From: Sanghuangporus weigelae
Taxonomy: Eukaryota; Basidiomycota; Agaricomycetes; Hymenochaetales; Hymenochaetaceae
Assembly (NCBI GenBank): GCA_033182465.1
Contig: CP137325.1
Location: forward strand, 1,798,001-1,862,000
Direction: 5' to 3'
Length of the DNA stretch: 64,000 nt
The notes under the pieces are model-generated. The model was not told where the DNA came from. It saw only the letters and a list, made by a program, of their open reading frames with translations, and ran no database searches. Positions 3,217-61,224 of the stretch are shown in pieces. Both the position numbers and the translations under genes were made by a program. The first letter of the stretch is position 1; the number at the start of each line of letters is the position of its first letter.

Positions 3217-3566
3217 TGAAAGGATCCGCTCAAAAACTCGCATCAGGATCGACACGATCGACAGATCTACACGATCAGCTTTCCAAACGCGACCGGTAAC
3301 CAAGCCAGCTATCAAAGGCCCAAGCAATCGAGCGGCCTAGGCAACAGTAACCCGTTACCACCCGAGCGCTAGAAGCACCGAAGCGGATACGTAATCCCGC
3401 TAACAGCTAACACCGCCGACCGCCTATTACCGCGGACTACCACTCTAACGCCGCCGACCAAGCAACCAGAGCGACCTCGATCAAAAGAAGCGATCAAACT
3501 TCTTAGAAGTCCAGAAGCACAACTACTAAAGCCTAAACGCTAAAAGGCTAAAGGCTAATAAGGTTT

Positions 3567-4208
3567 ATGGAGACCTCACTGGCATTTCAGCACTGTCAAG
3601 TCTGTGCACGAGTTTACATGGTCCTTTATGAAGTATACTACTTAGTATGCACGGCAACGGTTGGCACGCGTGACTGTCACATTGAAACCGAGCGATATCT
3701 TCAAGATACAATGCATTCCAATCCACCAAACCCAATAGTACCCAAGAAACGAGAGGAACTCACGATCACAACTCGGACCCCTCGAACTGCGAACCCGATA
3801 ACTTGGAGAATGATTGGATGGTATAGACCGGAGTTGCACACACCATGTCCAGCATCTACGATACAAGCAAACCTTTATTTACCGAGAGATGCGAACCTGG
3901 AGACCAAGCAATTACAACTCCTTATACAACGGAGGATATGGCATTACATTCGAGACATACGATATGAAGGCAAAGCATGGCTAGTCACCAGAACCCAGCA
4001 GAACCCGCCAGCAGAGCTTATGCAGTTCATGATATGCCTTGGACCATACTCTACACCAACCCGACACCTTAACACAGACGTGCGAGTTATGCTTACCCTC
4101 GCTGGACCTCGAGATGAATTCCGAAGAATCACATACCGAGCAGCCTACATCGCTCCAAGAGCAAAGATGCCACTCAATGACGGCAATGACATCGTTATGG
4201 AGTACTGA
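3567..4208 (+). CDS. U3-encoded ORF of element 1, copy in 5' LTR (213 aa)
   Basis: This intact ATG-to-stop frame lies wholly inside U3, in the sense direction. The product is soluble, rich in Arg, Pro and Tyr, and has three Cys in the first 30 residues. I recognise no domain. The identical protein is encoded in the 3' LTR (14346-14987), and a split homologue lies in the solo LTR with a few amino acid changes (for example Tyr to His, Asn to Ser, His to Arg), which keep the frame open. Since transcription probably begins downstream of it in the 5' LTR, the copy likely to be in the genomic RNA is the 3' one. Confidence 0.6.
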   Translation: METSLAFQHCQVCARVYMVLYEVYYLVCTATVGTRDCHIETERYLQDTMHSNPPNPIVPKKREELTITTRTPRTANPITWRMIGWYRPELHTPCPASTIQANLYLPRDANLETKQLQLLIQRRIWHYIRDIRYEGKAWLVTRTQQNPPAELMQFMICLGPYSTPTRHLNTDVRVMLTLAGPRDEFRRITYRAAYIAPRAKMPLNDGNDIVMEY

Positions 4209-4422
4209 CAGTGGAGCATTCCATATCGGAGCACCACCTCTATTGTCTCAGTCAGCAACTCCAAAGAATTCTGTCATAGTGGAGACGACCTTACAAAGAT
4301 TGGAGCAAAGTGGAGCGAAGCGCAGCAGGATGACAAAGGAACAGATGTAATGGTGGAGGAAAGTGGAGTAAAGTGGAGACAGGATGAGTAAGAAATAGGA
4401 CGGAAAATGGAATATCTGGGAG

Positions 4423-4431
4423 CATAAATAG
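4423..4431 (+). promoter_or_regulatory. TATA-like box of the LTR promoter
   Basis: CATAAATAG lies about 31 nt upstream of the segment (4458-4469) that is complementary to the primer-binding site, which is the expected start of R. The box is also present in the 3' LTR. Position fits a pol II core promoter, but no expression evidence is available here. Confidence 0.6.
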
Positions 4432-4457
4432 TTGTAGGATTAGGCCCTCATTTCCCC

Positions 4458-4742
4458 ATCTTTCGATCCTCTTAACACACTGGTGTAAAGCTTGCCCTAC
4501 AGCGAGCTATTACTGTGTGCTTTGTACTATCACGCCTCTTGGAAATCCCAATCTGCTTTACTATCACCTCGTATCTGAAAGCATCCATAACTCGAACCGC
4601 GACTAAGAAGGCTAGTAAGGGACCGCGTGGTACAGCCAGACGTGGGTAGATAAGATCACCTTTGCACAACATATCGCTGCTTAGGCAAAAGGATCGAACC
4701 GGTGTAACCCCGGGCCTACTCCCTAACATTGGATCGAAAGAT
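4458..4742 (+). promoter_or_regulatory. Self-priming pair: mRNA 5' end segment and PBS
   Basis: ATCTTTCGATCC at 4458-4469 (predicted 5' end of the RNA) is perfectly complementary to GGATCGAAAGAT at 4731-4742, which begins 2 nt (TT) after the LTR end. This is the geometry of Tf1-type self-priming, where the folded RNA 5' end serves as the reverse-transcription primer in place of a tRNA. I saw no obvious match of the PBS to a tRNA 3' end. The second element of this window (58903-58913 with 59121-59131) has the same arrangement with a different sequence. Confidence 0.75.
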
Positions 4743-5127
4743 CACTCGCTAGTTTTACCACCACCTCTCACGGGCAAGGTTCTTGGCTAGTGTTTTATCG
4801 AGGCGAGGACCGTCGACCTCAAGTCCCTATCGACGTCGCTAGTTTCGAGACTAGTACCCATATCGAATCCTCAGGACAAGTGCACATCCTGGAGAACGAC
4901 AAACCCAATTCACTTAAATCACATATCTACTATCATAACCCCTACAACGACGAAGTGTACCTAATAGCAAAGGCATCTGGTAGCCCTGCAGTTGGGAGCA
5001 CGCAAACAACAACCACGAAAGTAGCAGCAGTCCCTTCCACTATTGCTACATTCGACGAGAAAGGAACTACTTGGTTAACAGCACCAAGGAACAATAACCC
5101 TGAAGCATCAGGCGAGAAACGAAGTTC
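4458..5127 (+). other. ATG-free leader of element 1, with an ATG-less open frame
   Basis: No ATG occurs on the sense strand from the predicted RNA start to the ATG at 5128, about 670 nt. Roughly ten would be expected by chance. Within it a frame is open from 4727 to the TGA at 5129-5131 (about 135 codons) but has no ATG. Its stop overlaps the ATG of the next ORF as ATGA. The simplest reading is a leader kept free of upstream start codons so that scanning ribosomes reach 5128. The open frame could also be translated from a non-AUG codon, with termination-reinitiation at ATGA. Confidence 0.7.
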
Positions 5128-6162
5128 ATGAACCGATCAGGAAACGCCAACAACAGAAGTAACGGTCATCGAACGAACGAACGGGCGAACGATAATCAAA
5201 CGAGGTTCACACCTAGATCCCTCGACGAACGAGTTCAACATCTCACCAACAGGCTACGTAGTCTGGAAAGCGATCACGACATACTATACGCGACAACGAA
5301 CCACAGCATATTGTATCCACCAGTGATCAGAAGGCTACAAGAAAGGGTTGAAAGACTGGAAGAACGAACTGCAAACACGGGGCAGTCAAACAGTCTACCA
5401 ACCGGAGCATACGCGACAGCAGTAGGAGACCGATTCGAAGCACTCGAAACAACTACTCGAAGAATTGGAGCACAGGTAGCAGCTCTAGAGAGATATACTC
5501 TGGAATTGGATCGAGCAGCAGGGGCACTCAATCAACGGGTCATAGACGGAAACGGAGTACTTGACCGAGAGCTCAACGCTATCCGAAACAGGATTACTGC
5601 TCAGGAACAACAACTACAGACAATCGAGACGAGAATCGGAGAGCTTAACAGGACAGCTCTAGATCAACCAAGGATTGTTCAAGACATCCATAACCTGCGA
5701 GAAGCCCTACTCCAACTAGGACAAACAATCGAGTCGAGTCAACGCACCTACGCAGCTATACTCACATCGGTACAGACAACCGAAACTACCTCAAGGAACA
5801 TACTCGAACACGCTCAACGAATTCGAGAAGTAGCTCAGGCAGCACAACGCTGGGAATACTTTCTACCAAGAGAGAGAGCCCAACAGGAACAGAGTTCTGA
5901 CGAATCAGTGTCCTCAGACGAAGAAGCATCACGAAGGCCATTCTTACTCAGAACCCCACCTCGAACGGTTATCATCCAAGTACCAACAGTACCTGCAGTA
6001 CCAGCAAGTGGTTCAGTAGCAACCCAAGCGCCAGAGAATCCACCACCACCATCCTATTCACCACCAGCAGTGCCCATAAGCACTTACGATCATGTCGACA
6101 ACCGACCAGAAGGTGCAAGCACTGGAGCAGCAACTACAGACTCTTCAGACACAACTCTCTAA
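5128..6162 (+). CDS. Coiled-coil ORF upstream of gag, element 1 (344 aa)
   Basis: It opens at the first ATG of the predicted RNA. The protein is Arg/Glu/Gln-rich with long heptad-like stretches (about residues 30-240) suggesting extended coiled coils. An acidic Ser/Glu patch and a Pro-rich tail (about residues 255-325) follow. No CCHC box or enzymatic motif is present. It overlaps gag (ATG 6092) by 71 nt in another frame. The other retrotransposon has a coiled-coil ORF in the same place (56555-58348), so it is a conserved component, perhaps a structural or particle protein; that role is inference. Confidence 0.75.
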   Translation: MNRSGNANNRSNGHRTNERANDNQTRFTPRSLDERVQHLTNRLRSLESDHDILYATTNHSILYPPVIRRLQERVERLEERTANTGQSNSLPTGAYATAVGDRFEALETTTRRIGAQVAALERYTLELDRAAGALNQRVIDGNGVLDRELNAIRNRITAQEQQLQTIETRIGELNRTALDQPRIVQDIHNLREALLQLGQTIESSQRTYAAILTSVQTTETTSRNILEHAQRIREVAQAAQRWEYFLPRERAQQEQSSDESVSSDEEASRRPFLLRTPPRTVIIQVPTVPAVPASGSVATQAPENPPPPSYSPPAVPISTYDHVDNRPEGASTGAATTDSSDTTL

Positions 6163-7180
6163 ACACAGCATCAAGCTTCCGAAGTACTATGGCAAGCGAA
6201 GCGAAGATATTGATCTGTGGATTAGTCGATGTATCTCGAAGCTGGCACAGCATGGAGTCAAGGATGAGGAGGAGATTGCAAAGAGCCTATTTGCGGCCCT
6301 AGAAGGCGACAGCTACGATTGGTTTGCAGAAAAGAATACCCTAACATCATTCGATGCCAATGGGAAACTGAAACCAGTACCTGCGATTATCGCTGCAACA
6401 AATGGAATGTTCGCATCACTCAAGGACATGCTGAACTGGATGAGGATCCGAGCAGGACATCCGATCATTGGAGAACAGGAAGCCCTATTCCAACTACTAT
6501 GCATCCAGCAGAAAGGAGCAAGCATTAGGGCGTACAACGACGAATTCCGACGACTCAAAGCACGAGCACCAGACACGATGGATAAGCAGATGCTCAAGTA
6601 CATCTATGTCAAAGGACTAGACATGTGGGTCAAACGACGAGTCGAATCTGTACAACCCGATGCTTTCGAGAAGAACGACCTCGATGCATGGATGGAATGG
6701 ACAAGCAACCTAGCAAACTCTGATGCCAGGCAAAGGCTCATGGGTAATCAAACATACACCCCAAGATTCAAATCGAACGGACAGTCATCTTTCCGACCAC
6801 CAGTACAAACAACGAAACGAGATCCAGACGCCATGGATGTAGATGCACTCCGAGGCTTGCCGAAGAAGGGAGGCAAATGCTACAACTGTGAAAAGTCAGG
6901 ACATTACGCAAAGGAATGCAAGGCACCAAGGAAGCAAAAGGGTTCTTCCTCTAAGCGGCCGAAGAAGACTAATGGTGTAAAACGGAGGACGATGACAACA
7001 CGAACAATCGATTTCAAGGAAACATGTCCCGATCCACACTGCCGAAGGCCAGTCCACTACGACCATGTAGCATGGGCTAAAGGCGATGAATCAGCAGGAT
7101 GGACTTGCAAGCATGACGAAGAATACCGAAACAACATTCGCAAATCCCTAGCAAGTAAAGAGCAACAGGGAAAAGATTAA
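6092..7180 (+). CDS. gag: Gag of element 1 (362 aa)
   Basis: The first half is a retrotransposon Gag (capsid-like) region with the typical pattern around an LPKYYGKRSEDIDLWI start and a LFQLL...YNDEFRRLK helix block. A CCHC zinc knuckle, CYNCEKSGHYAKEC, lies near residues 262-275 and is followed by a basic tail for RNA binding. A second cluster of Cys/His residues (CPDPHCRRPVH) lies near the C-terminus. The frame ends at TAA 7178-7180, and pol is in the -1 frame with a slippery heptamer just before the stop. The ATG at 6092 lies inside the preceding ORF, so gag needs leaky scanning, reinitiation or another route to be translated. Confidence 0.9.
   Translation: MSTTDQKVQALEQQLQTLQTQLSKHSIKLPKYYGKRSEDIDLWISRCISKLAQHGVKDEEEIAKSLFAALEGDSYDWFAEKNTLTSFDANGKLKPVPAIIAATNGMFASLKDMLNWMRIRAGHPIIGEQEALFQLLCIQQKGASIRAYNDEFRRLKARAPDTMDKQMLKYIYVKGLDMWVKRRVESVQPDAFEKNDLDAWMEWTSNLANSDARQRLMGNQTYTPRFKSNGQSSFRPPVQTTKRDPDAMDVDALRGLPKKGGKCYNCEKSGHYAKECKAPRKQKGSSSKRPKKTNGVKRRTMTTRTIDFKETCPDPHCRRPVHYDHVAWAKGDESAGWTCKHDEEYRNNIRKSLASKEQQGKD
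7168..7174 (+). promoter_or_regulatory. -1 ribosomal frameshift site (G GGA AAA)
   Basis: The gag codons here read GGA AAA GAT TAA, preceded by G, giving the heptamer GGGAAAA in the X XXY YYZ form of a simultaneous-slippage site. A -1 shift enters a frame that is open through 7285 into pol and carries CEC...C residues in between. The stop lies only 6 nt after the heptamer. I did not test for a downstream pseudoknot. Confidence 0.75.
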
Positions 7181-10100
7181 GACCTCCATCGAACGAGACT
7201 GCGCGATGTGAGTGTAACAAGGGTGACGAGAAAGGTTTCAACAACCAGTGTTTCAAACCTCCTGGGTTCAACCCCAGTGAAGCGATGTACAATAAGCGAT
7301 TGCCAATACAAGCATTGCATCCCCGATTACCTATTCGAGTGAAGGTTGGAACAAAGACCCTAGCAGTCAAAGCGTTAATCGATTCCGGAGCTACATGCAG
7401 CACGATACACCCCAACTTGGTACGACACTACAGCCTATTCAAAAAGAGGCTTGATCACCCTCGACCTTTGAATAATGCGGATGGAAGTCCCAACCAAGGA
7501 GGAGCAATCACGCACGAGGTCTACACATTAATTTTTGATGGACCTAAACCGCAGCCACAAACGTTGGCAGTAGCAACCACAGGACAGGATCAAGTGATCC
7601 TAGGAATTGACTATTTGGCCAAAGTCAATCCCGAAATTGATTGGAAGAATCAAGTATGGAATCGGAATGGTAATTCGATACCATTCGAGCTCAACGTCAT
7701 ACGAGCTACCAAGAAGCGAAGGCACAGGAAGCGCAAACGGAAACGGCAAACGAAAGGCAAACCTGACAAGACAAGACCTAGGCATAACACGAAGCAACAG
7801 GCTCAGGACAGAGACAACTATCGACACTCTGGAGCACCAGGAATAATATTTGCGCCAAGGAGAGACAACAACGGACACTCTCACGAAACGAAGCCACAAG
7901 CGAAGCCGGAAACCAGACCAGCAACACCAAGACTGGAACAGGCAAAACAGACGCCAGAAGTGAAGAGTCCGAGCACGGAAAATATACCAGACTCTGCAAC
8001 GAAACAGCCACAACAGGAAACGGCAAACAAGCATCATCGAGATGAGGAGGAAATAAACTACACTCCCAAGCGATGGAAGAAACAGGCACCACAAGGAACG
8101 AGTATAGTGCAACGACGACCAAGGCACATACCGAGACGGATGATCCCAGCACGGCAATTGTACCAGACATCCGAAGGCGAAACAGAAGAGATAACAGGCA
8201 AGCATAGCCTAGACGAACAGGAGGAAATAAATGACTCTCCGAAACGTTGGAAGAAACAACCACCACAGAAGATACATCCACTAAGGCAAAACATGCCGGA
8301 AGATGAAGAACTCTGGCCATCACCAGAAGAAAACCCGGGCATGAAGTATAGGATACGACCACGAAAGACACGGTATCCAGAGAAGCCAGTGGCAGGCATT
8401 ATACGACCGAGGACGGCATCGTTAATGCGAGGAGCTAGTCCCACACCGAAGCGTACAAGATGGGCAGACAACGAAAGCGATATCGAGATGCAAGACGAGC
8501 AGGAGACAACAGAAGACACTCCTATGCACGACATAGAGCCAGAAGACATTGAAAGTCTTAGGACGACCAACCAACCAGCTACCCTTACCAGAAAGGAAGA
8601 GCTCGCTGCAAAGCTAGAGCTAGACATCAATCGAAATTGGTCACCAAGGCAGCAGAACCAAGTCTCACAGCCACTGAACAAAGCGAGTTCAGTATCCCAG
8701 CAGTATTCTCAGCAAAAGGCAGCTGCAGAAGGATTACTAGGAACACAGAAACGAGATTGGCGAAAACTCCTACCAAAGGAAATAGAAGACTACGCAGACG
8801 TCTTTGATCCTGATAAATCGAGAAGGTTACCCAAGCATACAAAATGGGATATGGCGATTAACCTCAAAGAAGGAGTACCATTACCGAAACCAAGGCCTAT
8901 TATCAAGCTCACACGAGAAGAGCAAGCAGCACTCGACGCTTATGTCAAAGAGTTACTTGACAAAGGATGGATTGAAAAGGTTCAACCACACGAACCGTGT
9001 CCGGTAGCAGCACCAGTCTTCTTTGTAGGAAAGAAAGACGGAGGAGCACGAGCAGTAACCGATTACCGAGACATCAACGACACGACAGTATCAGATCCAT
9101 ACCCGATACCGATCATGAGTGTTCTCCCAGAGAAACTGGAGAAAGGAAAATTCTTCTTTACACTCGACATGCGATCAGGTTACAACAACCTGCGAATCCG
9201 AGAAGGAGACGAGTGGAAGGCAGCATTCCGAGTTGGCAATGCAGTCTACAAGCCAAAGGTCATGATGTTTGGAATGAAGAACTCACCTGCAGTATTCCAA
9301 AGATTCATGAATGACAACTTCGAATATTGGCTCAGGACAGAAGAAGCACTCAACTATTTGGACGACCTTATTGGTCAAGCACAAACTGAAGAGGAACATT
9401 GGAAACTCCTCAGGGCAATTCTACAGAAATGCCGAGAGCTCGACATTTACCTCAAAATCGAGAAATGTCACTTCCTCCAAACCCAGCTCGACTACTTGGG
9501 ATTTGTAGTAGGAACGAAAGGCATCCAGATGGATCCTTATAAGCTCAAAGCTATTCACGAATGGCCAGTGCCAAGGACGAAACGACAAGTTCGAAAGTTC
9601 CAAGGATTTTGTAACTTCTACCGAAGATTCATCAGGAACTATGCCGATACATTCGCACCTATTGGCGACCTTATCAAAAAGGATCGCAAGTTCATATGGG
9701 CAGAGGCACAAGATAAGGCATTCGAAAGTATCAAGAAGGCATTCGAAACGGAAGTCGCATTGGCAATGCCAAAGCCAGACAAACCATATACATTGGAAAC
9801 CGATGCATCCGATGTAGCGATTGGTGCAGTCTTACAACAAGAAGACAACCAAGGAGAACTGAGACCTTTAGGTTTCATGTCGAAAACTCTAACGAACACC
9901 CAACGAAACTATCCGACGCATGACAAAGAGATGCTAGCAATCATGGAAGCACTCAAGCATTGGAGACACCTATTGGAGGGAACCAAAGAACCAGTAACAA
10001 TCCGAAGCGATCATGCAAACCTCCGATACTTCATGACAGCTCAGAATCTATCGAGACGTCAAGCAAGATGGGCACTAGAGTTATCACGATATAACTTCAA

Positions 10101-11763
10101 GATTCTCCATTGGCCAGGCAAGAAGAACCAAGCGGACGAGCTATCACGACGATCCGACTATATGCCAGAGGACAAGGACAACTTAGGAGTTACCTTATTA
10201 CCTCCTGATACGATCAAGCAACAAACATTGCGACGCACAGAGATCAACGGTCTATACAAGCTAGAAACTGAAATGGTCACTATCTCTGATCCTATTATCC
10301 GAACGATCAAGAGGAACTACAATACCGAGGAGGCTAAGAAGGAAATTCAGGCGATCAAGCAGAGCAACGGCTACAGTTACAGGAACGGTTTGCACTACGT
10401 AACCAATGCATTATATATCCCGCCGTCCGCCAACCTACGAGCGTTGCTAATCCGAAGGCGCCATGATCACAAACTTGCAGGCCACCCAGGAGCAGAAAAG
10501 ACCATAGAGCTTGTAAAGCGATCATACTATTGGCCGAAGATGGAAGAAATGATCCGAGCATATACCGCAACCTGCGACATATGTCAGCGTGCAAAACCGA
10601 TTCGACAGTTTCGAAATCCGCCGCTCCAACCGTTGGAGGCACCACATCAACCATGGGAAACCATAACCTGTGACCTGATTACCGACTTACCAGTTAGCAA
10701 TGAAGGCTACAGTGCGATACTCGTTATAGTGGACAAACTCACTAAAATGGGGAAGTTCATTCCTTGCCAAGGAATACCCAATGCTAAGCAGTTGGCACGT
10801 TTGTTCCGCCAACATGTCTTCAAATACTACGGGGCCCCTAAACGAGTAATCTCCGACCGAGGTAGCAACTTCACCGCGCAATTCCTCAAGGAGTTCTGCA
10901 GACTCATCGATGTCGATTGGAAAACTAGTACAGCGTATCATCCACAAACCGATGGTCAAACCGAGCGACTAAATCAAGAGCTCGAACAGTACTTACGCTG
11001 CTATGTGTCCTACCGACAAACAGATTGGGCAGAGTACATCGATATAGCAGAATTCGCCTACAACAACAGGAAGCACAGTACTACACATCAGTCACCATTC
11101 TATACACTGTATGGATGGCATCCTCACCTGGACGTTGCGGAGACCGGTGATTCAAACGTCCCAGAAGCAATAAATCACCTAGAGGAGCTTCGACAAGTAC
11201 AGCAAGAAGCCTATAATTCGATTAGGCAAGCGAATGAGGCAATGAAGCTTTATGCAGACCTGCATCGAGGCAAACTGCCAGGGTACAAGCCAGGAGACGA
11301 AGTGTTACTAGACATGAGGAATCTCAGTCGATTGGAACCAACGAAGAAACTTGCAATGAAATGGGCAGGGCCTTATAAAGTCGAGAAGGCAGTCGGACAA
11401 GTGTCATTCAGATTACGCTTACCCGAAACCCTTCCGATCCACCCAGTGTTTCATGCGAGTCTTCTCAGGCCTTACAAACGAAAGGAATACCCTGGAAGAC
11501 CCACTTTGGATGAACCACCACCTATTGAAGTAGAGGGAGAAGCAGAGTACGAAGTGGAGACGATTCATAATACAAGACGTCATCGGAGCAAGGTCCAATA
11601 CCTTATCCAATGGAAAGGATACCAGGAGCGAACATGGGAGCCACTTGACAACCTCAAGAACTCCTATCAAATGATCGAAGCATTCCATAAAAAGTATCCT
11701 CAGGCAATCCAGCCACCGAACCTTAACCAATGGATCGCCGCACGAAAACGAATGAGGCAATAG
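7175..11763 (+). CDS. pol: Pol of element 1: protease, RT, RNase H, integrase, chromodomain
   Basis: The first ATG of the frame is at 7285 (1492 codons from there), but the frame is open from the frameshift site. Seen in order, counted from that ATG: aspartic protease LIDSGAT (Asp33); a charged spacer of about 350 residues with an EEIN..PKRWKKQ repeat twice; reverse transcriptase with YLDD near residue 691; RNase H with ETDAS near 838; integrase zinc-binding H..H..C..C near 1060-1105, then the catalytic Asp, ISDRG and TDGQTERLNQELEQ (DDE) near 1130-1230; and a C-terminal chromodomain (YEVETIHN...YLIQWKGY...TWEP) near 1420-1460. No stop interrupts it. The chromodomain would guide integration to modified histones in related elements. 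Confidence 0.95.
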
Positions 11764-12017
11764 TTGCATCACATGCACTCCACCCGATGGAGCCGCTTAT
11801 GGATCCACAATAGAGACGATGAGTAAGGTCCCCAACGACCTTACCAAGCAATGACATCAATGTGGCACACCAAAGCGAGAGCAGAGATAGAAGAATTAGG
11901 CAAGACATCGCCGACATACCAACAAGATGGTATAAAACATGGAGAACTTCGAGCTGAACGAACAACAACTCGAATCGCAACAGCTCTACTTCACTACAAG
12001 CGAACCACTACTCAGCT

Positions 12018-13016: not shown

Positions 13017-13555
13017 ACAACTCTTCTTTTATGCAACCCCTTTCCCATATCGTGACCCGACATGGTCAATTATGCATTTCATTCTTACCTTATGGTATTT
13101 ATGGTCACATCCGACCAAATTATGCTTTAGGCACCTCCTTATTTCACGCTTATTCGGTCAACCAGCACAAATGAAGCACTATGCAGAAGTGTCAAAGAAC
13201 CAACAAGGGCCTAGACATTTTGTATATTGCGTCATTGTGCCGGCACCGAATTAGCAGATTATGCATACCCTTTATTATCCTCTATGCAACGGAGAAGCCA
13301 AAAGTTTACGTGAAGTCACTCCCTTGCATTATGCTAGGATGTGCCTTCACGCTAAAAGGCACTCCAATCCCACTTTTTCTTCGAAAAACTCCATTTGGGG
13401 GTTGAAGAGCCGTAGGTAAACACCTGGAACTTCACTCCCAAATTGGTATAAAACTTATTCATTAACGACTTTATGATTTCTTTCTTATCACTTTCAATTG
13501 CGTCATATTCTTTACATGATGCACATTTCATATTCATATCCCTTCCCACCACCCT
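13017..13555. other. Non-coding stretch between the extra ORF and the antisense gene
   Basis: AT-richer than the coding part and without a convincing frame. A 66-codon minus-strand frame (13352-13552) follows the antisense gene but has no supporting feature, so this is probably 3' untranslated sequence for both strands. Confidence 0.5.
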
Positions 13556-13871: not shown

Positions 13872-13982
13872 TTTGGAGCAGAGATGATGATGGTTTGATA
13901 GCAAAAATCAACCATCACTAGGCGACCCTTTATCCGAGCTTTCTCACGGATTAGGATGAACATTTCTCCGAAAGTTCATCTT

Positions 13983-13995
13983 AGGGGGGGTGTAG
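13983..13995 (+). promoter_or_regulatory. Polypurine tract of element 1
   Basis: AGGGGGGGTGTAG lies directly before the 3' LTR start (TGAAAGG at 13996). It is the expected plus-strand primer for reverse transcription. Confidence 0.85.
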
Positions 13996-17196: not shown

Positions 17197-18970
<1,774 letters not shown>

Positions 18971-49791: not shown

Positions 49792-49802
49792 TTCCTCCTC
49801 CT
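49792..49802 (-). promoter_or_regulatory. Polypurine tract of element 2
   Basis: On the minus strand AGGAGGAGGAA lies directly before the 3' LTR, as needed for plus-strand priming. Confidence 0.85.
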
Positions 49803-53000: not shown

Positions 53001-55330
53001 TCCTTTCCTAGTGTTTTCTTGGCTATAACGAATACTGGTGCACAAGTGCTTGCTTTTTCGTTGGCAGGGACGTTGTTCCCTACAACACGAATCCATCCTT
53101 TCTTCAGGTCATCGTGAATCCATTCTTCGACCGCTCGTTTCTCGGCAGGAGCGAGTGGATATACTGGTCCGGGTTTGGGTAGCTCTGCATTGGGTAGCAG
53201 TTCTATCTTCATATCCCATTGGCTCGAGTTAGGTAGCCGTCTAGCAGCATCCTTGTCAAACCTATCCCGGAAATCCCAGATTTCTTTTGGAAGAATATCT
53301 TCGAGGGTTTGTGTTCCTGCATGGTCTGCCATCCTTTCGTCGAGTGCTTTCTCCTGAGCATACTTTTGAGCTATGCTGTTGTATTTGAGGAGTCGTTCCC
53401 TTCGTGATGCGACTTGTCGCTGCTCTAGTCGGCGAATCCAGGTAGAAGGCTTGGGTAGCGCTTCTAATCGAGAGCCGTCCTCCACCCGCATCGAAGTGGT
53501 GGGCTTATGCGATCCTAGGTTACCCTTGAACACCGTTTCGGATCCAGCTTTTCTCTCTAGCACTTTTCCTTTCACCCTTTCGTGCGGCTGCTTAACCGAG
53601 TCAACAGGCGGAAGCCATTGGCGACTCTTTTGCCCCTGCGAGAGCTTCTGCTCTATCGCGGCATATCTAATTGACCTGCTACCTTTACCGTTTGTTTTCC
53701 CTGTCGGAGCAGGGCCCTGCATTTTGGCTTCTCGCCATGGTCTTCGCGGGCGCACTTGAGCTCCCAAAGCCAGCCTACTTGATGCTTGCGGCGTACTGTC
53801 TTCGGCTCTGTGCCGGAATGGGACTACCCTCCCTTTGGGGTGGACCATTTCTCCAGGCCTTAGTCTACCCTTGAACGACGTCTTGGGTCTGGTCGCTCCC
53901 TTTTCTCTCGAAGTGGGAGATCTCGCTAGGTGGCCGAACCTAGTGCGCTGCAGAGCATTAGTTCTCTGAGGCTCCCGACCCCGCATACTCCTGCTAGTAC
54001 GCTTGTTTCGTGTGGTGAAACTAACCGACTGCTTCTGCACTGCCAGGGTTGAGTCATTTTCTCCCTCGTGCATGGATGGAGGAGTCCACTCCACCCTAAT
54101 ACTCCTTATTACAGGGTTCGAATCGGTACCACTTCCCCCACTGCGTTGTCTTCGAACTCGTAGCGGATCAGAGGCATAGTGCCCTGGCTTTCCTGCCTTT
54201 GGTGGCACGCTCGGCCTCTTTCCTTTCTTCGTATCCGATCCTTCTGAGTCGACAGACATTTGCCCTTGAATCTCGGCTTGCACTCTTGCTTGTGCCTCGT
54301 GTGTCGTGGTTGAAGTTTCCTCTTGTCGTGCGGCATTCTTCTTGATCTCCTGCAGCTGTAAATGCGCTCCGTACATGCTTCCATACCATTGGTAGAGCAT
54401 TTCTGAGTCGGACCCTTTGTCTATGTCCCTCATCATCGCATTATACACTGCTTGATCTGCCTCTTCTAGGGAGTTAAAATCGAAAAATTCCCTACGGTCA
54501 AGGGTTATCCTGTGTATGTCATCCTTCGTATAGAATTGCCATTTTCCGACTTCCTTGTGGAGGACGGATTTGGATTCTGGATGCATGTCGCTTAGAAACA
54601 CTATTGGTGGTTCGATTTCGGTTTTCTCCATTGGTACTCCTTCTGGTGGTAGATTCGCGGGTTCCTCGACTTCTTCCTCACTTTCGGTGTAGTGTCCTGA
54701 ATCCATATCGCTGTGGTAGTAGACCCTAGTTTCCCATTCTTCTTCCCGTTCGTCTTCTGCGTCCCTTCCCCAATTCTGGGGAGCGTATTTGGGAACCTTT
54801 CGCCATCGTTTGCGCTTCCTGGTTCGTCTCGAGGCAATAGTTAGTTCGATCATACGCAGACGTGCCGTACCATTGAAGTTAACTTCTTTGCTTCCTTTGC
54901 TGAGCGTTCCTTTGGTCCAATCGATGGTTGGCTTATACTGTTCAAGCCAATCATTCCCTATGAGAAACTTGTCTTCATGAGTGTCTACCACGGCGATGTC
55001 CATTAAACCTCTAGTAATCCCTGTATCCACTATTGCTCGAACATTCCGAGTCCATCCACCATGATTAATCGATCCATCGGCATTCCGGATGGTATAGTTA
55101 CCTTCCGCCGGCACTGTTTTTAGTCCTAGGCTCTGTACCACCGTTGGACTAATAGTAGTGATTGCGGATCCGGAGTCAATCATAGCCGAGAGATTAACCT
55201 TTCTCTGTCCCTGAATGACGTCAATGGGTATAGTGGGATGGTTGGAATTTGGTCTAGCAATAGTCCATCGGCGCTTTACTTCCTTTGAGCCCTTGTCAGT
55301 ACCCGATGGTGACTGACTGCTCTTTAAAAA
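50030..55330 (-). CDS. pol: Pol of element 2: protease, RT, RNase H, integrase, chromodomain
   Basis: The first ATG of the frame is at 55183 (1717 codons from there) and lies within the protease (AMIDSGSAIT), so the true product begins upstream, by -1 shift from gag near 55325. Seen in order: protease; a charged, Arg-rich spacer of about 480 residues; RT with YLDDIIIYAE; RNase H with ETDASNFAMGAVL; integrase with the zinc-binding H..H..C..C, TMDYVTGLP, ISDRGPQF and TDGQTERVNQEMEQ (DDE); and a chromodomain (YEVEVIRDMRKRHN..YQVKWLGYPEEENTWEP). About 110 residues follow the chromodomain, Arg/Tyr-rich and ending acidic, more than in most chromoviruses. No internal stop. Confidence 0.95.
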   Translation of the reverse strand, partial: FLKSSQSPSGTDKGSKEVKRRWTIARPNSNHPTIPIDVIQGQRKVNLSAMIDSGSAITTISPTVVQSLGLKTVPAEGNYTIRNADGSINHGGWTRNVRAIVDTGITRGLMDIAVVDTHEDKFLIGNDWLEQYKPTIDWTKGTLSKGSKEVNFNGTARLRMIELTIASRRTRKRKRWRKVPKYAPQNWGRDAEDEREEEWETRVYYHSDMDSGHYTESEEEVEEPANLPPEGVPMEKTEIEPPIVFLSDMHPESKSVLHKEVGKWQFYTKDDIHRITLDRREFFDFNSLEEADQAVYNAMMRDIDKGSDSEMLYQWYGSMYGAHLQLQEIKKNAARQEETSTTTHEAQARVQAEIQGQMSVDSEGSDTKKGKRPSVPPKAGKPGHYASDPLRVRRQRSGGSGTDSNPVIRSIRVEWTPPSMHEGENDSTLAVQKQSVSFTTRNKRTSRSMRGREPQRTNALQRTRFGHLARSPTSREKGATRPKTSFKGRLRPGEMVHPKGRVVPFRHRAEDSTPQASSRLALGAQVRPRRPWREAKMQGPAPTGKTNGKGSRSIRYAAIEQKLSQGQKSRQWLPPVDSVKQPHERVKGKVLERKAGSETVFKGNLGSHKPTTSMRVEDGSRLEALPKPSTWIRRLEQRQVASRRERLLKYNSIAQKYAQEKALDERMADHAGTQTLEDILPKEIWDFRDRFDKDAARRLPNSSQWDMKIELLPNAELPKPGPVYPLAPAEKRAVEEWIHDDLKKGWIRVVGNNVPANEKASTCAPVFVIAKKTLGKDGKPEYRIVIDYRGLNAVVIPDHQPMPLLHMLPDDLAHAKWFSTLDLRSGYNNVRIHPGHEKYAAFRTHMGVYQPLVMQFGLMNAPAVFQRAMNELFQDMIGQGILIYLDDIIIYAETKQEHWDLLAEVLRRLRKADFFCKPEKCYFAKQELDYLGFVVNQSGMQMDPYKVKAVQEWPDLSSKRDIRKFIGFANFYRKFIEGFAKIARPLTELMSGKKTFTWGDRQREGFVKLKEAFTSAPMLVRPDHEKQFVLETDASNFAMGAVLSQESDDGILHPIGYWSNTYRDAENNYPVMDKELLAIVKALSNWRHHLEGAKHEIRVISDQANLRYFMGARKLSGRQARWATFLSRFRFRIEYRPGTKNSRADALSRRPDYEQGVEDVPEQVLLPPELFRNQELPVRTIRVFEITGGSELGEKIRAGYEKSKEQEIGTFEEGYWWRDGKLVIPPVDEIKRELVRQCHDASAAGHPGIDKTITKLERRVWWPKMREWVEEYVRTCDTCQRTKARRGKTQPPLQPLPVMNRPYEEITMDYVTGLPTTSKGNNAILVVVDRFSKMGTFIPTTVNANSKTTADMMIKHVYSKVGTPKTVISDRGPQFASRFTEQVNQALGIETKLSTAYHPQTDGQTERVNQEMEQLLRCYSSLQQDDWDEHLPMAEFAYNSRSHSSTGKSPFEMVYGFQPEVGFKLPIQGTQDYVAMRMKHQQEALEALTKARDAMKKFADKHRGPMPEFEIGDKVMLDGRNLTLLVPTRKLGDRNIGPYKIVAKHGPVNYELDLPKELRIHPVFYAGLLIPYRERKDPTQRTRPPPEVIAGEAEYEVEVIRDMRKRHNTWEYQVKWLGYPEEENTWEPVEGLRNAPEKLREYHERNGWPDAVNLPFRKKVAGIVALAQRLLDVRRADDYYLSTLYGRKVLQRTRQRRKYDNKTGIKQRDFAYPEWHKHHWRAAKRPFTRANALPIRRYDRMEGLEEGLSYNDWYHADSTDSEVSEA

Positions 55331-55334
55331 TCCT
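55324..55334 (-). promoter_or_regulatory. Probable gag-pol -1 frame change point, element 2
   Basis: On the minus strand GGATTTTTAAAG spans the gag stop. Gag reads GAT TTT TAA; pol reads GGA TTT TTA AAG and stays open. Slippage on the T-run directly at the stop codon would fuse the two. Less certain than the GGGAAAA of element 1. Confidence 0.5.
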
Positions 55335-56352
55335 CCTCGGAATCCTCCTCGAGGGTGTGCGAAGCCCGTTCCTTCCGCCTTGGTAACTTCGCCCGTTTGT
55401 CCAGTAATTCTTCCATTTCGGAATCGCTATCAATCCCAACTTCCCGGCGTTTTAGGAAGCGGCCAGTCTTGCCAGATCGTTTCTTTTGCACCCGTCTCTT
55501 GTAGTTGGTTCGGTGTCCACGGCTTCCCTGTTGTTCTCGCCCTACATTGTTGCAGTCCCGTGCAAAATGACCTGTTTTGCCGCATACCCAGCATGCCCCG
55601 GAATTTTCCCCTCGGGACCCCCTAGTAAAGCGCCTAGACATATCAATGTCCATAGGCTCACCCTGAAACTCAGCTGGATGACGAGCTTCAGGGGGCACCG
55701 GCGTGTACGATACCGCCTGTCCGTCTTTAAACATAGGGGTATACTTCTTATTACTGCCAATTACTTTGGCTGCTATTAGACTGTCCTCCAGATTTTTCGC
55801 GTTATCCTGCCATTGGGTCAGGTCCCAATTAGGGTGTTCCGTATTTGTAAGGAGTGCCTTTAGGATGGTCTGGTTCAGTCCACGTTTGAACTCGTAAACC
55901 AGTGCTTGTCCATTGTAATGCTTTGGTAGTCTCATCCTGATGTCGTTGAAGGCCCTACTATACAGCTTTACCCGCGCCCGTTCCTGATAAATCGTTCGTA
56001 TGTTTCGCTCGGCCTCTTCTTCTAGTCCGAAAATGCCATTGTGGTTGAGCGCTAATTCGTTCCATAGATCTGTCTCGGTGTCCCATCCACCCTTTTGGTC
56101 AATAATCCAATTATTCGTGACCGGTTCTTGCTTCCAGGTGGAGACTAGTCGATTCCTATTCACAGCCCATTTGCCGTTAACCCAAGTCTGAGCTTGTCCT
56201 CGTAAACATTCCAAAATGATCTTAACCCGTTTTTCTGGATTGTCGGGATGTTTCTCGTTCAACCGACTGATCATTTGATTCTGAAAGTTTTCAAGCGACT
56301 CATATGGGTTTCCCTTAAACAAAGGGTACTTCATGATATCTTTGTTAGACAT
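55324..56352 (-). CDS. gag: Gag of element 2
   Basis: The first ATG is at 56352 (the open frame extends 24 nt further). Features: an FKGNPYESLENFQNQM start of the capsid-like region, the helix block ERARVKLYSRAFNDIRMRLP, a CCHC knuckle CWVCGKTGHFARDC and a basic tail. The frame ends GAG GAT TTT TAA, and pol is in the -1 frame that crosses this point. A run of five T followed by three A could act as a slip site, but it is not a canonical heptamer. The ATG is 203 nt downstream of the preceding ORF stop. Confidence 0.9.
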   Translation of the reverse strand: MSNKDIMKYPLFKGNPYESLENFQNQMISRLNEKHPDNPEKRVKIILECLRGQAQTWVNGKWAVNRNRLVSTWKQEPVTNNWIIDQKGGWDTETDLWNELALNHNGIFGLEEEAERNIRTIYQERARVKLYSRAFNDIRMRLPKHYNGQALVYEFKRGLNQTILKALLTNTEHPNWDLTQWQDNAKNLEDSLIAAKVIGSNKKYTPMFKDGQAVSYTPVPPEARHPAEFQGEPMDIDMSRRFTRGSRGENSGACWVCGKTGHFARDCNNVGREQQGSRGHRTNYKRRVQKKRSGKTGRFLKRREVGIDSDSEMEELLDKRAKLPRRKERASHTLEEDSEEDF

Positions 56353-56554: not shown

Positions 56555-58348
56555 TTATTCCCGAGCTTCAACTCTCTCCTCGCCACTCTCATGCTCTTCG
56601 CTTTCCTCTTCCGTTTCCCAGTCGTCGTTATTCGATGTGAGATAATCGTAGTCGCTTGTATACGGAAATATACCAATATCGGGACCTCGTACCCAAACCA
56701 CCCGTGTCATGTTCGCTACCCCCTGCACCGGTTCTCCCACTACCACTGTGGTAGACTCCGGCCGTGGAGGGCAGCTACTAGGACGCAAGATAGGATCATA
56801 AATGAATTCTGATTCTGGGGAATACTCACTCGCTGCCTGAAGCCTTTCCTCCCTTTCCCCAATTGTCTGGGCGCTAGGGGTTGGAGTTCCAGGTGGCGAG
56901 TTTTCATGAGGGCCTTGGAGTCCATTCCGTTCGAAACGATATCCGTTTGCCCCAAGTCGTTGGGGGCGAACCTCGACTAACACTCCTTCTTCGTTCCACA
57001 TCAGCTCAGGAAATGCTTCTCCTCCGAGCTCTGGGTTTCGCCAGCCATCTCCCGTAGGCCACGGTCGATTTTCCGTGGGTATTACCTCCCTCAGCAGTTC
57101 TTCGGCTTGCTGGTCAAGGTCTTCTGTCTGGCTGGCGGTGGAAACATAGTCCTCGAGTTCCTCACTATCGAGCTGGGCGACGACTGACTGTTCTTCCAGT
57201 ACTTCCTCTTGTTCTAGCGTTTGCGGGGGTCCTGTTTCGGTTTGATCGTTTGCCTGGCGTTGTCCTGCATCTTGGAGATATTCGTCGATCAACCGTGCAA
57301 TACGTGGCCTGCCTTCTCCATGTATTGGAATGAGAGGTGGTGGCATGTCGTCGGAGTCAGCTGTTAAGGTTGCGAAGCGACTAAACAGCTGTCCTCTCCC
57401 GGCGAGTGGTGATTCTGGGGAAACCCTTCCTTCACGTCTTGTTTCTCGCATTCGGTAGGACTGCCTAGACCGGATCGTTTGCTGGATTCGACGAATACCT
57501 TCGGTAATGGAGTAGTGGCTCGCGGTTTCTTCTTCGGCGTTGCTGATTCGCGCTCGGGTAGCTTCGACTTGCTCGATCAGATAGGCGACCTGCGTATGAA
57601 GCTGCAGGAAGTCTACCCCACAAAGTCGGACGATCTCTTGTTGGGCATTGACGAGTTGTTGAGTCATGGCTGATTGACTGCCATTAGCCGTCGCCGTTAT
57701 TGCACCAAGAAGTCGTCCTTGCAAAAGTCCAAAGGCGAAGTTCAGCCTTGTGTCCTGCATCGTGGTGACTCGATCTGTCTGCTCGTTGATCGTCGTTACC
57801 ATTCCCTCCAGGGTGTGTTCGAGGGTGTGGTGTAGGAATTCTCCCAGAGTCTGTCCTTCTACTGTGATGTGTTCGGAAAATTCTGAACCCATGTCATAGA
57901 GTCGAGAGACAGTAGCGGTGAGAGTTCGCATGGACCGATCAAGGCTTGTAAGTCGGAGATCGAGGCTGATGATGGAATTCCGTAGTCGGGCGAGAGCTTC
58001 GTCAGCATTCCCGTTAGTGCCGACCATTCGATCCAGGCGTCCATGTAGACCGTCGAGTCGTTCTCGGATGCGGTCCAAAACGGATTCCAGGTGTTCTCCA
58101 GCTCCGTGCTGAGGTACCGCCAGTCGTTGAGCGTAGAGTAAAACTCTCCGACCGGTTTGACGGAGTGAGGACATTCCTTGGATGATTTCCCGTTCCAGCC
58201 AGACCCGTACCGTTGCAAGGCCGTGAAGTACGCCTCCTCTACCTCCGCATTGTTGAGTAAAGACGTATACCAGGGAAGAAAACCAGAGGACGCTTGATGC
58301 AATCCAGAAACTAGTCCAACAAGCTTGCCACAGTTCCATCGGTGACAT
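56555..58348 (-). CDS. Coiled-coil ORF upstream of gag, element 2 (597 aa)
   Basis: It opens at the first ATG of the predicted RNA (58348). The N-terminus has a hydrophobic stretch (WTSFWIASSVLWFSSLVYVF, about residues 12-31) that could be a membrane anchor. Then come long heptad-rich segments (LDRIRERLDGLHGRLDRM and so on) to about residue 290, an acidic Gln/Glu-rich part, and a C-terminal part rich in Pro, Trp and acidic residues. No enzyme motif. It is the positional counterpart of the 344-aa ORF of element 1. It overlaps an ATG-less frame at its start. Confidence 0.7.
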   Translation of the reverse strand: MSPMELWQACWTSFWIASSVLWFSSLVYVFTQQCGGRGGVLHGLATVRVWLEREIIQGMSSLRQTGRRVLLYAQRLAVPQHGAGEHLESVLDRIRERLDGLHGRLDRMVGTNGNADEALARLRNSIISLDLRLTSLDRSMRTLTATVSRLYDMGSEFSEHITVEGQTLGEFLHHTLEHTLEGMVTTINEQTDRVTTMQDTRLNFAFGLLQGRLLGAITATANGSQSAMTQQLVNAQQEIVRLCGVDFLQLHTQVAYLIEQVEATRARISNAEEETASHYSITEGIRRIQQTIRSRQSYRMRETRREGRVSPESPLAGRGQLFSRFATLTADSDDMPPPLIPIHGEGRPRIARLIDEYLQDAGQRQANDQTETGPPQTLEQEEVLEEQSVVAQLDSEELEDYVSTASQTEDLDQQAEELLREVIPTENRPWPTGDGWRNPELGGEAFPELMWNEEGVLVEVRPQRLGANGYRFERNGLQGPHENSPPGTPTPSAQTIGEREERLQAASEYSPESEFIYDPILRPSSCPPRPESTTVVVGEPVQGVANMTRVVWVRGPDIGIFPYTSDYDYLTSNNDDWETEEESEEHESGEERVEARE

Positions 58349-58793
58349 AGTTGTTTCGCGAATGAGTAGTTGCCTCGGTAGACCAGTGCTAGTACTTGGT
58401 GTAGGAAGTGTCCGTGTTCCAAGAGGGTGTATTCGAAAGCTTTATATTGTTGGGTGAGAGCGTACAATTCTTTTTCTTCAGGTGTTTGTCCTCGCAGTAC
58501 TTCCCAATTGACTTTACTGCCGTCTAGCAGTTTGTCTACCTGCTGACACAGGAATCTTCTCCCAACCCCTTCTTGTTGGGCGGCGGCAAATTGAAGCTCC
58601 AGGGCGGATAGTATAACCGACCTGTAGGGTTCTGGTATAGGGGTTGTTAAATCCTTCTTACCTCGATAGAAGTTAAGCGTGCGAAAGGCGACAGTTAACT
58701 CTTCTTCGAAGCTTCGAAGGGCTTGAACGAATCCCTTGTGTACTTGATAAGCCTGCTTGAGCTGTTGTCGCCACGCTGGCGTGTGTCAGTCTC
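57859..58793 (-). CDS. ATG-less open frame in the leader of element 2 (about 310 codons)
   Basis: Stop-to-stop frame between the PBS and the coiled-coil ORF. It has no ATG in the first 145 codons. The first part reads like a real protein (for example FVQALRSFEEELTVAFRTL, VDKLLDGSKVNWEVLRGQ, LLEHGHFLHQVLALVYRG), less so after the overlap with the coiled-coil ORF begins at 58348. It could be started at a non-AUG codon, be joined by splicing to the U3 ORF, or switch frames into the next ORF. Element 1 has a shorter counterpart at 4727-5131. Confidence 0.45.
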
Positions 58794-59131
58794 AATGTGT
58801 CACAGGCACAAGAAGAGAACCCTCCTGAGGCAGAGCAATACTTACTGATCGTTAGTGGGTATTTGCACTACGAAACAGCAAGATTGGTTACCCCAAGATT
58901 GGAGCAAAATTATAATGTTAGGACCAGTGTTTTTAGACGAGGTGGTCAGTCTAAGCGTACCGGAACAAGTCCCTGCTTATTCCTTCTGATGATAATTGAT
59001 TGGAGACGGAACGAAGGTTATAGATGTACTACTTTAGAAGCGAGCGATAGGCTCAAGCTTGACCTCAGTAGTGGAACAGGGTTTCAATCAAAGGGTACAG
59101 TTTTCGATTGAGAGTACAAAATAATTTTGCT
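58349..59131 (-). other. ATG-free leader of element 2
   Basis: On the minus strand no ATG occurs from the predicted RNA start (59131) to 58349, and in fact none back to about 59313. That is about 780 nt of RNA where roughly twelve would be expected by chance. The same feature is present in element 1. Confidence 0.75.
58903..59131 (-). promoter_or_regulatory. Self-priming pair: PBS and mRNA 5' end segment
   Basis: On the minus strand ATAATTTTGCT (58913-58903) begins 2 nt (TT) after the LTR end and is complementary to AGCAAAATTAT (59131-59121), which lies about 31 nt downstream of the TATA-like box. It is the same geometry as in element 1, including the TT spacer, with a different sequence. 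Confidence 0.75.
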
Positions 59132-59158
59132 GAGGGACAATGCCCCGCTCAGCTGGCC

Positions 59159-59167
59159 CTTAAATAA
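59159..59167 (-). promoter_or_regulatory. TATA-like box of element 2
   Basis: TTATTTAAG on the minus strand, about 31 nt upstream of the predicted R start at 59131. Distance fits a core promoter. Confidence 0.55.
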
Positions 59168-59518
59168 CCTATTTACTAAATAGTACCGACTACCTATTAC
59201 TACCGACTACAGCCTTGCTATTGGTCTAGACAATATGTTTTCTCTGACACCAGTACTCTACTCTGGTGCCAACACCGATACTTTCCTCTAGTGTTGAATC
59301 ACAATACTTCTACCATATTAGGAGGGTTTGTTTGAGTCCTACTACCCCGATGCTTCGAGAAGCTTCTTCCGTGCTTCCTCCGATCTACAATCGTTATCAC
59401 ATGTTAATCTCTCCTTATCTTTACCCCGCGATCCTTCTCCGTTCCCAGACGGGTTCACATGATAGTTGCCAAGCTATCGCTTCTCTGGCGCTCCGTTCCC
59501 GGGCCGAGCTTCTGCCGC

Positions 59519-60394
59519 TTAATCCTCGATCATGGGGGAGATAGTGATATCAGGGTTAGAGATCGGCAGAGCTTGCCGATCTTCTCCCGGCGAATGAGTG
59601 TACTCCGCTACACTCCTTCTGTGCCTCGCCGCGACTTCGATGTCCGATAGTTGTAGTCCTGGGCCCGTGGTTAGCCGTAGCCTCTGTCCAAGGTGCTCGC
59701 GGCCATTCCACTCATCAACTGTAATTACCCCTGGCTCTGACGCTCGCCAAGCCTGCATTAAGCGTTCTATCGCTTCTTCCGTAAGATGTTCAATGTCCGA
59801 AGGTGGCCGCTTGTAAACTGGCCAATCCACTTCCACTGCCGTGTGACTGCACAAGGTCTGGTGCCGATGCTGATTGATCCAAGCTCGCACGCCGACCTTC
59901 AATGCATAGACATCCCTATCGCTAAGCCATATGGATACCTCATGGTCGTATGCACTCATTCCGTGGTTCGGTAATGGTTGGTCTTCTGTTCTTTCCGAGG
60001 GTCCGGGCTTATGCCGAATCTTGACATCGGCTGCTTCCCTTGACACTAACCGTTCCGTGAAGTTCTTCATGAGCCATTCCGCAAGTACCCAGCTTCGTTG
60101 GTAGGCCAAGTAACAATTGGCGCACACCAAGCTCTCATGTACAAATCTTCTAGTTGCACCACGCCGATAATGTCTTCGTTGCAGGAGTTCCGTATACCTT
60201 GCGACATTCCTTTCTTCCATCGCCGCCAGACTGCGTTCCGGCGGTGGAGTATGTCCAATGTGCATATTAGTTAGTCCTAATTGCAAACCATTAGAGTCCT
60301 CCGTGTCTTCTCCAGACGATCCGTGGTTTGCTACTCTTGAGTCGCCACCACTGTTCTGCCGAAGTAGCCTTTCGAAATAGTCTTGATTTGGCAT
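59519..60394 (-). CDS. U3-encoded ORF of element 2, copy in 5' LTR (291 aa)
   Basis: Protein identical to that of 48856-49731. Starts at the first ATG of the LTR and stops about 360 nt upstream of the TATA-like box, so it is unlikely to be in RNAs that begin at R of this LTR. Confidence 0.6.
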   Translation of the reverse strand: MPNQDYFERLLRQNSGGDSRVANHGSSGEDTEDSNGLQLGLTNMHIGHTPPPERSLAAMEERNVARYTELLQRRHYRRGATRRFVHESLVCANCYLAYQRSWVLAEWLMKNFTERLVSREAADVKIRHKPGPSERTEDQPLPNHGMSAYDHEVSIWLSDRDVYALKVGVRAWINQHRHQTLCSHTAVEVDWPVYKRPPSDIEHLTEEAIERLMQAWRASEPGVITVDEWNGREHLGQRLRLTTGPGLQLSDIEVAARHRRSVAEYTHSPGEDRQALPISNPDITISPMIED

Positions 60395-61224
60395 CGCAAC
60401 TCGGTGTGTAAAATTTAGCCCACGCCGTATTAGATAACCACAATTTTCGTAACAAGATATGCCTCAAAGCAGCACATTCTGGTATACAATTCAACTCAAA
60501 CTCAGTCTATAAATTCATTTTATAGTCATATTATCATTCTGGATAGCTTTGGGGAGGTGCTGGACCAGCAGGGATCACAGAAAAAAATGCACATGCAAGG
60601 AAGAGGCAAAAAAACGAGATTTTCATCATTTTGGGGTCATGTTTTGCTCTATTTTCTTGATCGTTTTTCCAAAACGAAAGCCCTTTCGAAAAGATGAATT
60701 TAGCAACTTAGATGATGTGAAACCGTTGAGATTTGGGTGAGATATGATTTTATCTGTGTTTTGAGGCTCTCATGGCGAGAAAAGTGGTGAAATCACGTGA
60801 TTACCAACAATTTTGCAACTAGCTGTAATACAACCGCTGATCTTAGCATGTTCCCATTTGTCACACTTTCTATTTATTTCCCCTACATTAATTTGCAGAG
60901 TTGTTGTTTTCTCTTCAAACTTTGCACAGACACACCCATGATGATACTTTAGTGATATGTGCAGCTATCTTCTATATAAATTGGCCAGAACAAGCTCAAG
61001 AGCAATTGTTGCAAGTTAAACTCAACCAAATACAACCAAATTAGCCAGTGCACAATTTCTCTACACTGAACGCATCACTCAAATTTTCTGAAATTTGATA
61101 TTATCATTGGTACATATTCTCTGCATCAGTGTGATTTTTTTCGTGACAAGGGAAGAAGAATTGAGGGAGGAAATTCAAGTGTTCAAAGGAACAATACTGT
61201 TTAAAGGACCAGTAAATGACTGTA

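What the first reader, a model, noticed from the sequence alone, without database searches (positions are those of the whole stretch)
3217..60454. Two families, one blueprint: a lineage of coding-LTR, self-priming chromoviruses
Both elements combine long LTRs with a U3 ORF, a self-priming PBS after TT, an ATG-free leader, a coiled-coil ORF as first cistron, gag second, pol by -1 shift, a very long protease-RT spacer and a terminal chromodomain. I do not know a named group with all of these.
Basis: inference. Interest (0 to 1): 0.85.

Follow-up and report, generated by a model that had tools for sequence, protein, structure and literature searches.

The report
Mushroom retrotransposons with genes inside LTRs
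Two jumping genes of a wood-decay mushroom are close cousins from one branch of the chromovirus family, and they share an unusual plan: each carries a real, conserved gene inside its long repeated ends and a front stretch almost free of start codons that seems to steer which protein is made.

Summary
Both elements are real and young. E1 (+, 3217-15507) and E2 (-, 60454-48253) lie in a genome whose assembly statistics fit Sanghuangporus weigelae. Their pols form one clade of 11 sequences (100/100) with E1 and E2 in sister subclades, so the central claim, one lineage, holds, with corrections.

Self-priming, the -1 gag-pol frame and the chromodomain are not diagnostic; an unrelated chromovirus in the genome also has a self-priming site. 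The unusual traits are: (1) a U3 gene under purifying selection, found in four Sanghuangporus species; E2's is homologous to that of a third family, E5, while the link to E1's is only suggestive; (2) an extra gene before gag; (3) a 5' stretch almost without ATG; (4) a protease-RT distance of 548-713 residues against a median of 280.

Corrections: part of E2's "ATG-free leader" is a coding frame (ORF0) without an ATG start. In E1 the only ATG between predicted RNA start and gag is ORF1's weak start, as in rice tungro bacilliform virus leaky scanning; E2's gag cannot be reached that way. E1 has a 3' gene that E2 lacks. My searches found no published group with this layout: a new variant of a known kind.

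The parts
3217..4728 (+). E1 5' LTR, 1512 bp (TGAAAG..CTAACA)
   Evidence: 1 mismatch to the 3' LTR
13996..15507 (+). E1 3' LTR, 1512 bp
3567..4208 (+). E1 U3 ORF, 213 aa, CxxC..HxxC (second copy 14346-14987)
   Evidence: dN/dS 0.21 vs diverged copy L070 and 0.11 vs L069; homologues of 212-213 aa with the same start Met in S. baumii, S. vaninii, S. weigelae
4424..4430 (+). E1 TATA-like box
   Evidence: kept in L073 and L070
4458..4469 (+). E1 predicted RNA 5' end (R start), complementary to the PBS
4731..4742 (+). E1 self-priming PBS (12 nt) after TT
   Evidence: 0 of 2000 shuffles
4736..5131 (+). E1 open frame without ATG whose TGA overlaps ORF1's ATG; coding NOT supported
   Evidence: 131 codons without stop but 8 of 22 unique substitutions synonymous, P 0.28
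5128..6162 (+). E1 ORF1, 344 aa, coiled-coil-like; its start is the only ATG between predicted RNA start and gag, T at -3
   Evidence: dN/dS 0.19-0.20 vs L073, 0.53 in a 117-codon match to L072; heptad score
6092..7180 (+). E1 gag, 362 aa, weak gag match + CCHC zinc knuckle
7168..7174 (+). E1 slippery heptamer G_GGA_AAA in gag frame
7159..11763 (+). E1 pol frame: protease, long spacer (548 residues from protease motif to RT), RT, RNase H, integrase, SH3_Tf2-1, chromodomain
11958..13016 (+). E1 3' ORF, 352 codons between stops, no Pfam family at E 0.1
   Evidence: dN/dS 0.17 vs L065; 111 genomic matches
58916..60454 (-). E2 5' LTR, 1539 bp (TGTTACG..CTAACA)
48253..49791 (-). E2 3' LTR
   Evidence: 2 mismatches to the 5' LTR
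59519..60394 (-). E2 U3 ORF, 291 aa, CxxC..HxxxC (second copy 48856-49731)
   Evidence: dN/dS 0.15-0.32 vs four copies; S. sanghuang and S. vaninii homologues; homologous to E5 U3 ORF (0 of 400 shuffles)
59121..59131 (-). E2 predicted RNA 5' end, complementary to the PBS
58903..58913 (-). E2 self-priming PBS (11 nt) after TT
57859..58785 (-). E2 ORF0, 308 codons, no ATG in any frame from the predicted RNA start down to 58349; non-AUG start inferred
   Evidence: synonymous/other vs L071 27/19 in the overlap with ORF1 (P 1.4e-5) and 19/20 upstream (P 0.008); 11/2 among 8 E2 copies (P 4.7e-5)
56555..58348 (-). E2 ORF1, 597 aa from its first ATG; protein-level constraint seen from about 57862 on
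55324..56352 (-). E2 gag, 342 aa
50030..55426 (-). E2 pol frame, 713 residues from protease motif to RT, chromodomain about 120 residues before the end; -1 to gag, T_TTT_TAA at the gag stop

Best explanation
E1 and E2 are two families of one well-separated lineage of mushroom chromoviruses (Ty3/gypsy with chromodomain) that has turned its long LTRs and its 5' region into coding space. Cycle: transcription starts at a TATA-driven site near the end of the LTR, and the first 11-12 nt of the RNA fold back on the PBS two bases after the LTR and prime minus-strand synthesis (inferred from sequence). Ribosomes scan a 5' region purged of ATGs. In E1 some start at ORF1's single weak ATG and the rest reach gag's better-placed ATG (leaky scanning, inferred). 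In E2 a first gene, ORF0, is read from a non-AUG codon (coding shown by substitution pattern, start inferred), ORF1 from the first ATG, and gag by another route, most likely a spliced RNA (inferred, weakest step). Pol follows by -1 frameshift (frame shown, slip inferred). The U3 gene makes a small protein with a conserved CxxC...HxxC or HxxxC pair, probably zinc-binding, most likely expressed as a 3' accessory gene from a subgenomic RNA, as nef or sag are in retroviruses (recalled); its role is probably regulatory (inference).
For: One clade. U3 gene: dN/dS 0.11-0.33 for E1, E2 and E5 against pol controls of 0.12-0.22 in three stretches of 79-493 codons; cross-species homologues, E1's of constant length and start; E2-E5 homology. 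ATG purge: 1 in 1634 nt (E1, 12.8 expected) and 0 in 783 nt (E2, 6.8 expected), ATG being the most depleted of 64 triplets, 0 of 1500 simulations as low in each; old copies have regained ATGs. ORF0. PBS, RNA start and TATA. Long spacers in the clade.
Against: No RNA or protein data. E1 and E2 U3 proteins do not match each other (264 of 400 shuffles score as high). The E1-E5 link is only suggestive (E 0.022; 4 of 400 shuffles). E2's gag lies behind 30 ATGs, so the two families do not share one gag mechanism. E1's leader frame shows no coding signal. U3 homologues were found in Sanghuangporus only (7 of 7 hits), so the gene is not shown for the other clade members. Two of the eight other clade rows with a measurable or missing spacer value are only moderately long (P0012 356, P0016 367) and four could not be measured. 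One 54-codon piece of pol gave dN/dS 1.55.
Confidence: 0.72

Rival explanations
1. The two families are sisters in pol, but the coding LTR, extra 5' ORFs and ATG purge arose separately in each (convergence in one host genus).
For: ORF1 and U3 proteins of E1 and E2 do not match; gag access differs; the 3' ORF is seen only in E1.
Against: Same order and position of the parts; both U3 proteins carry CxxC and HxxC or HxxxC in one (forced) multiple alignment, and low-confidence models give the same order helix, four strands, helix after CxxC; E5 links to E2 strongly and to E1 weakly.
Confidence: 0.3
2. The ATG purge serves the RNA (genome packaging or a structured leader) rather than translation.
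For: dS is low in the ORF0-only part (0.22) against 0.48-0.63 in windows of the ORF1-only part of E2.
Against: ATG stands out among 64 triplets (CGT and TGA are next in E1); in E1 the purge runs through ORF1 and ends at gag's ATG, gag itself having 35 ATGs against 24.9 expected.
Confidence: 0.12
3. The U3 ORF is a chance open frame in the LTR.
For: The 150 E1 copies scored (of 430 candidates) are 98-100% identical, so their intact frame proves little.
Against: dN/dS 0.21 at dS 0.83 (E1) and 0.15 at dS 1.1 (E2); conserved start and length across species; homology to E5.
Confidence: 0.02

Closest known systems
Fungal chromoviruses, Tf1/sushi and Tcn1-type self-priming group
   Same: Pol order, chromodomain, self-priming PBS (self-priming of Tf1/Sushi and of most Tcn1 elements: PMC6317226 passages)
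   Different: The majority of full-length fungal elements surveyed have one or two ORFs (PMC2864245 section 5); its Figure 3 legend names an additional ORF of unknown function. I saw no LTR gene and no ATG-purged 5' region described there; its supplementary tables were not seen.
Plant Ogre/Tat/Athila elements, and Retrosat2 of rice
   Same: Extra ORFs (most OTA elements, PMC6317226 passages); Retrosat2 has LTRs over 3.2 kb and an ORF0 (PMC3485330 abstract)
   Different: Ogre, Tat and Athila are classed as non-chromoviruses in PMC6317226; the class of Retrosat2 and the place of its ORF0 were not checked. No LTR-internal gene mentioned in what I saw
Rice tungro bacilliform virus (Caulimoviridae)
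   Same: ORF I starts at AUU, ORFs I and II lack internal AUGs, and ORF III is reached by leaky scanning over 900 nt (PMC5902531 passage)
   Different: A pararetrovirus; works like, not a member
MMTV sag and other U3 or 3' accessory genes of retroviruses
   Same: An accessory protein gene in U3, hence in both LTRs (sag as a gene of MMTV: PMC4667437, start of abstract in a listing; its U3 location is recalled)
   Different: No sequence relation was looked for

Membership tests
Chromovirus (chromodomain Ty3/gypsy) | Pol order PR-RT-RNase H-IN with C-terminal chromodomain | tested here: met
   Ty3 Gag-Pol is the best solved relative of E1 pol (7q5b)
Chromovirus (chromodomain Ty3/gypsy) | RT-IN tree position among chromodomain elements | tested here: met
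   rows from other fungi, algae, plants and vertebrates; no named reference element (Tf1, sushi, Tcn1) was in the tree
Tf1/sushi self-priming group | PBS next to the LTR complementary to the RNA 5' end | tested here: met
   (sequence only; RNA start not measured)
Tf1/sushi self-priming group | Phylogenetic grouping with Tf1 or sushi proper | not tested
   no Tf1 or sushi sequence was in the tree
Tcn1, MarY1, Laccy, Puccy and other named fungal clades (PMC2864245) | RT/IN grouping with the named clade | not tested
Plant Ogre/Tat lineage | Non-chromovirus pol without chromodomain | tested here: not met
   chromodomain present
Works like RTBV leaky scanning | ATG-free stretch with weak or non-AUG first starts, then the gag-pol start | tested here: inconclusive
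   E1 fits; E2 only up to ORF1; no translation data

The most novel reading that the evidence does not exclude
A previously undescribed chromovirus lineage of mushrooms in which every LTR, even a solo one, carries one conserved zinc-binding accessory gene family, and in which the 5' region is a compressed polycistron with a long gene started without AUG and gag reached by leaky scanning, convergent with plant pararetroviruses.
Probability: 0.4. Interest if true: 0.8.

Novelty: new variant of a known kind. Interest (0 to 1): 0.6.

Why it matters
LTRs are usually taken to be regulatory. Here they hold a gene under purifying selection in three families (E1, E2, E5), so solo LTRs may leave expressed genes behind, and LTR length would partly reflect coding load. 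The 5' region offers a testable case of polycistronic translation control in a retrotransposon, and the lineage gives a compact set of relatives for asking how LTR elements gain accessory genes.
Full report
What is there. The window belongs to a 33.87-Mb, 13-contig genome. Contig sizes of 4,491,666 and 2,774,212 fit the longest contig (4.49 Mb) and N50 (2.77 Mb) given for the 13-contig, 33.96-Mb assembly of Sanghuangporus weigelae (PMC10803629 passages); in the passages seen, that paper gives LTR elements only as repeat numbers and percentages. E1 (plus strand) has LTRs at 3217-4728 and 13996-15507, E2 (minus) at 60454-58916 and 49791-48253, with 1 and 2 mismatches. E1 sits in a reverse-oriented solo LTR of its own family (2239-3216 and 15508-16055).

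One lineage. E1 and E2 pols share 43% identity over 1094 columns, gags 27% over 308. Trees of the RT-RNase H-integrase part used the listed database hits of both pols (the best 120 of 3108 and of 2901). Of these 196 proteins 193 entered, 3 (P0019, P0132, P0141) aligning over too few residues; with E1, E2 and E3 that makes 196 rows. E1, E2 and 9 others form one clade (SH-aLRT 100). A second tree of 47 chosen rows with a mixture model gives that clade 100/100, with subclades E2 + S. sanghuang + three unnamed rows (100/99) and E1 + three S. baumii rows + two unnamed rows (100/100). A third chromovirus of the genome, E3 (L063), lies elsewhere; it has LTRs of about 454 bp and a distance of 211 residues from protease motif to RT.

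Trait by trait. Spacer: the distance was measurable in 125 other sequences, clade members and E3 included (median 280; 5-95% range 232-379); E1 548, E2 713. Values over 400 in others were P0019, P0020, P0022, P0011 and P0132, which belong to the clade by tree or by 69% (P0019 to E1) and 91% (P0132 to E2) identity, and P0134, a giant Puccinia gene model. Two clade rows are shorter, P0016 (367) and P0012 (356), and four (P0013, P0014, P0027, P0131) had no motif found. Self-priming: both PBSs follow TT; E3 also has an 11-nt match, after one T, so self-priming is not special to this clade. Frameshift: pol is -1 to gag in both; E1 has in-frame G_GGA_AAA, E2 only a T run at the gag stop.

The U3 gene. 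E1's U3 ORF (213 aa) gives dN/dS 0.21 against L070 (dS 0.83), 0.11 against L069 and 0.13 in a 31-codon piece; E2's (291 aa) gives 0.15, 0.32, 0.19 and 0.21 against L074, L075, L076 and L066; E5's gives 0.12-0.26 in five comparisons and 0.33 in a 54-codon piece. Pol controls give 0.16, 0.22 and 0.12 (493, 79 and 411 codons) and 1.55 in a 54-codon piece; gag gives 0.12-0.19. The copies are decayed, so part of their changes came after selection ended. A profile search returned 7 proteins at E 0.01, all from Sanghuangporus, among 5873 candidates. E1-type proteins from S. baumii, S. vaninii and S. weigelae keep the start Met and a length of 212-213 aa; E2-type ones come from S. sanghuang and S. vaninii. 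In the genome, 63 of 113 matches of the E2 U3 ORF are near full length at 94% or more, 62 of these without a stop, and 7 further matches at 21-23% lie in another repeat. That repeat is E5, a 1.5-kb LTR for which I identified no interior. E2 and E5 proteins are homologous (hhalign 1.8e-5; 0 of 400 shuffles). E1-E5 is suggestive (0.022; 4 of 400) and E1-E2 not detectable (0.47; 264 of 400). A joint alignment of 11 keeps C15, C18, H96 and C99 of E1 invariant, but that alignment was forced. Models from separate alignments, of low confidence, give the same order of main elements: helix, four strands, helix.

The 5' region. From predicted RNA start to gag's ATG, E1 has one ATG in 1634 nt (12.8 expected), the start of ORF1 with T at -3; gag's ATG has A at -3. 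E2 has none in 783 nt (6.8 expected); simulations gave P 0.001 and 0 of 1500. The old E1 copy L073 has 10 ATGs in this stretch, ORF1's own included; 6 of the 9 new ones stand where E1 has ACG. L073, L078 and L079 have 5 each in a 500-nt stretch, ORF1's own included. In E2 the frame 58785-57862 behaves as coding: against the old copy L071, synonymous versus other changes are 19/20 upstream of ORF1's ATG (P 0.008) and 27/19 in the overlap (P 1.4e-5), while the ORF1 frame there has 12/34; among 8 E2 copies, one being the window copy itself, it is 11/2 (P 4.7e-5). These P values were not corrected for testing three frames, and in the leader upstream of ORF0 one of three frames reached P 0.05 against L071. 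The first 40 codons of ORF0 hold only two near-cognate starts, both ACG. ORF1 itself is constrained: 0.19 in E1 against L073 (0.53 in a 117-codon match to L072) and 0.29 in E2. E2 ORF1 has 26 ATGs inside it, so gag cannot be reached by leaky scanning there; a splice-acceptor-like YAG before gag's ATG is kept in L071, weak evidence for a spliced RNA.

Novelty. Literature searches of the open-access library brought no element with this layout among the listings; most subscription papers are not in it. PMC2864245 was seen as passages and section 5; PMC3248453, PMC10803629, PMC5902531 and PMC6317226 as passages; PMC3485330 as abstract and outline; the rest as listings.

Noticed in passing
44244-45334 and 47530-48254 + 60455-60830: A 1.09-kb repeat that is nearly palindromic (the copy in L064 is 91.8% identical to its own reverse complement); E2 is inserted in one copy.
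   Followed up: no
G000:C6:1181493-1214483: E1 U3 ORFs (4) and pols (3) recur at exactly 10,779-bp spacing, the length of one LTR plus interior, as in tandem arrays that share LTRs.
   Followed up: no
L066:3137-4635: E5, a 1.5-kb LTR family with a 249-codon ORF, inserted in an old E2-like element; in three places its two ends lie about 1.1-1.5 kb apart with other sequence between.
   Followed up: partly
11958-13016: E1 has a 352-codon ORF after pol, under purifying selection (0.17), no Pfam family; a relative at about 51% identity lies in L065.
   Followed up: partly
L063:2278-10000: E3, a chromovirus with LTRs of about 454 bp, also has an 11-nt self-priming match.
   Followed up: partly
58259-58348: The first 30 residues of E2 ORF1 look like a membrane-spanning helix (read by eye, not tested).
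   Followed up: no
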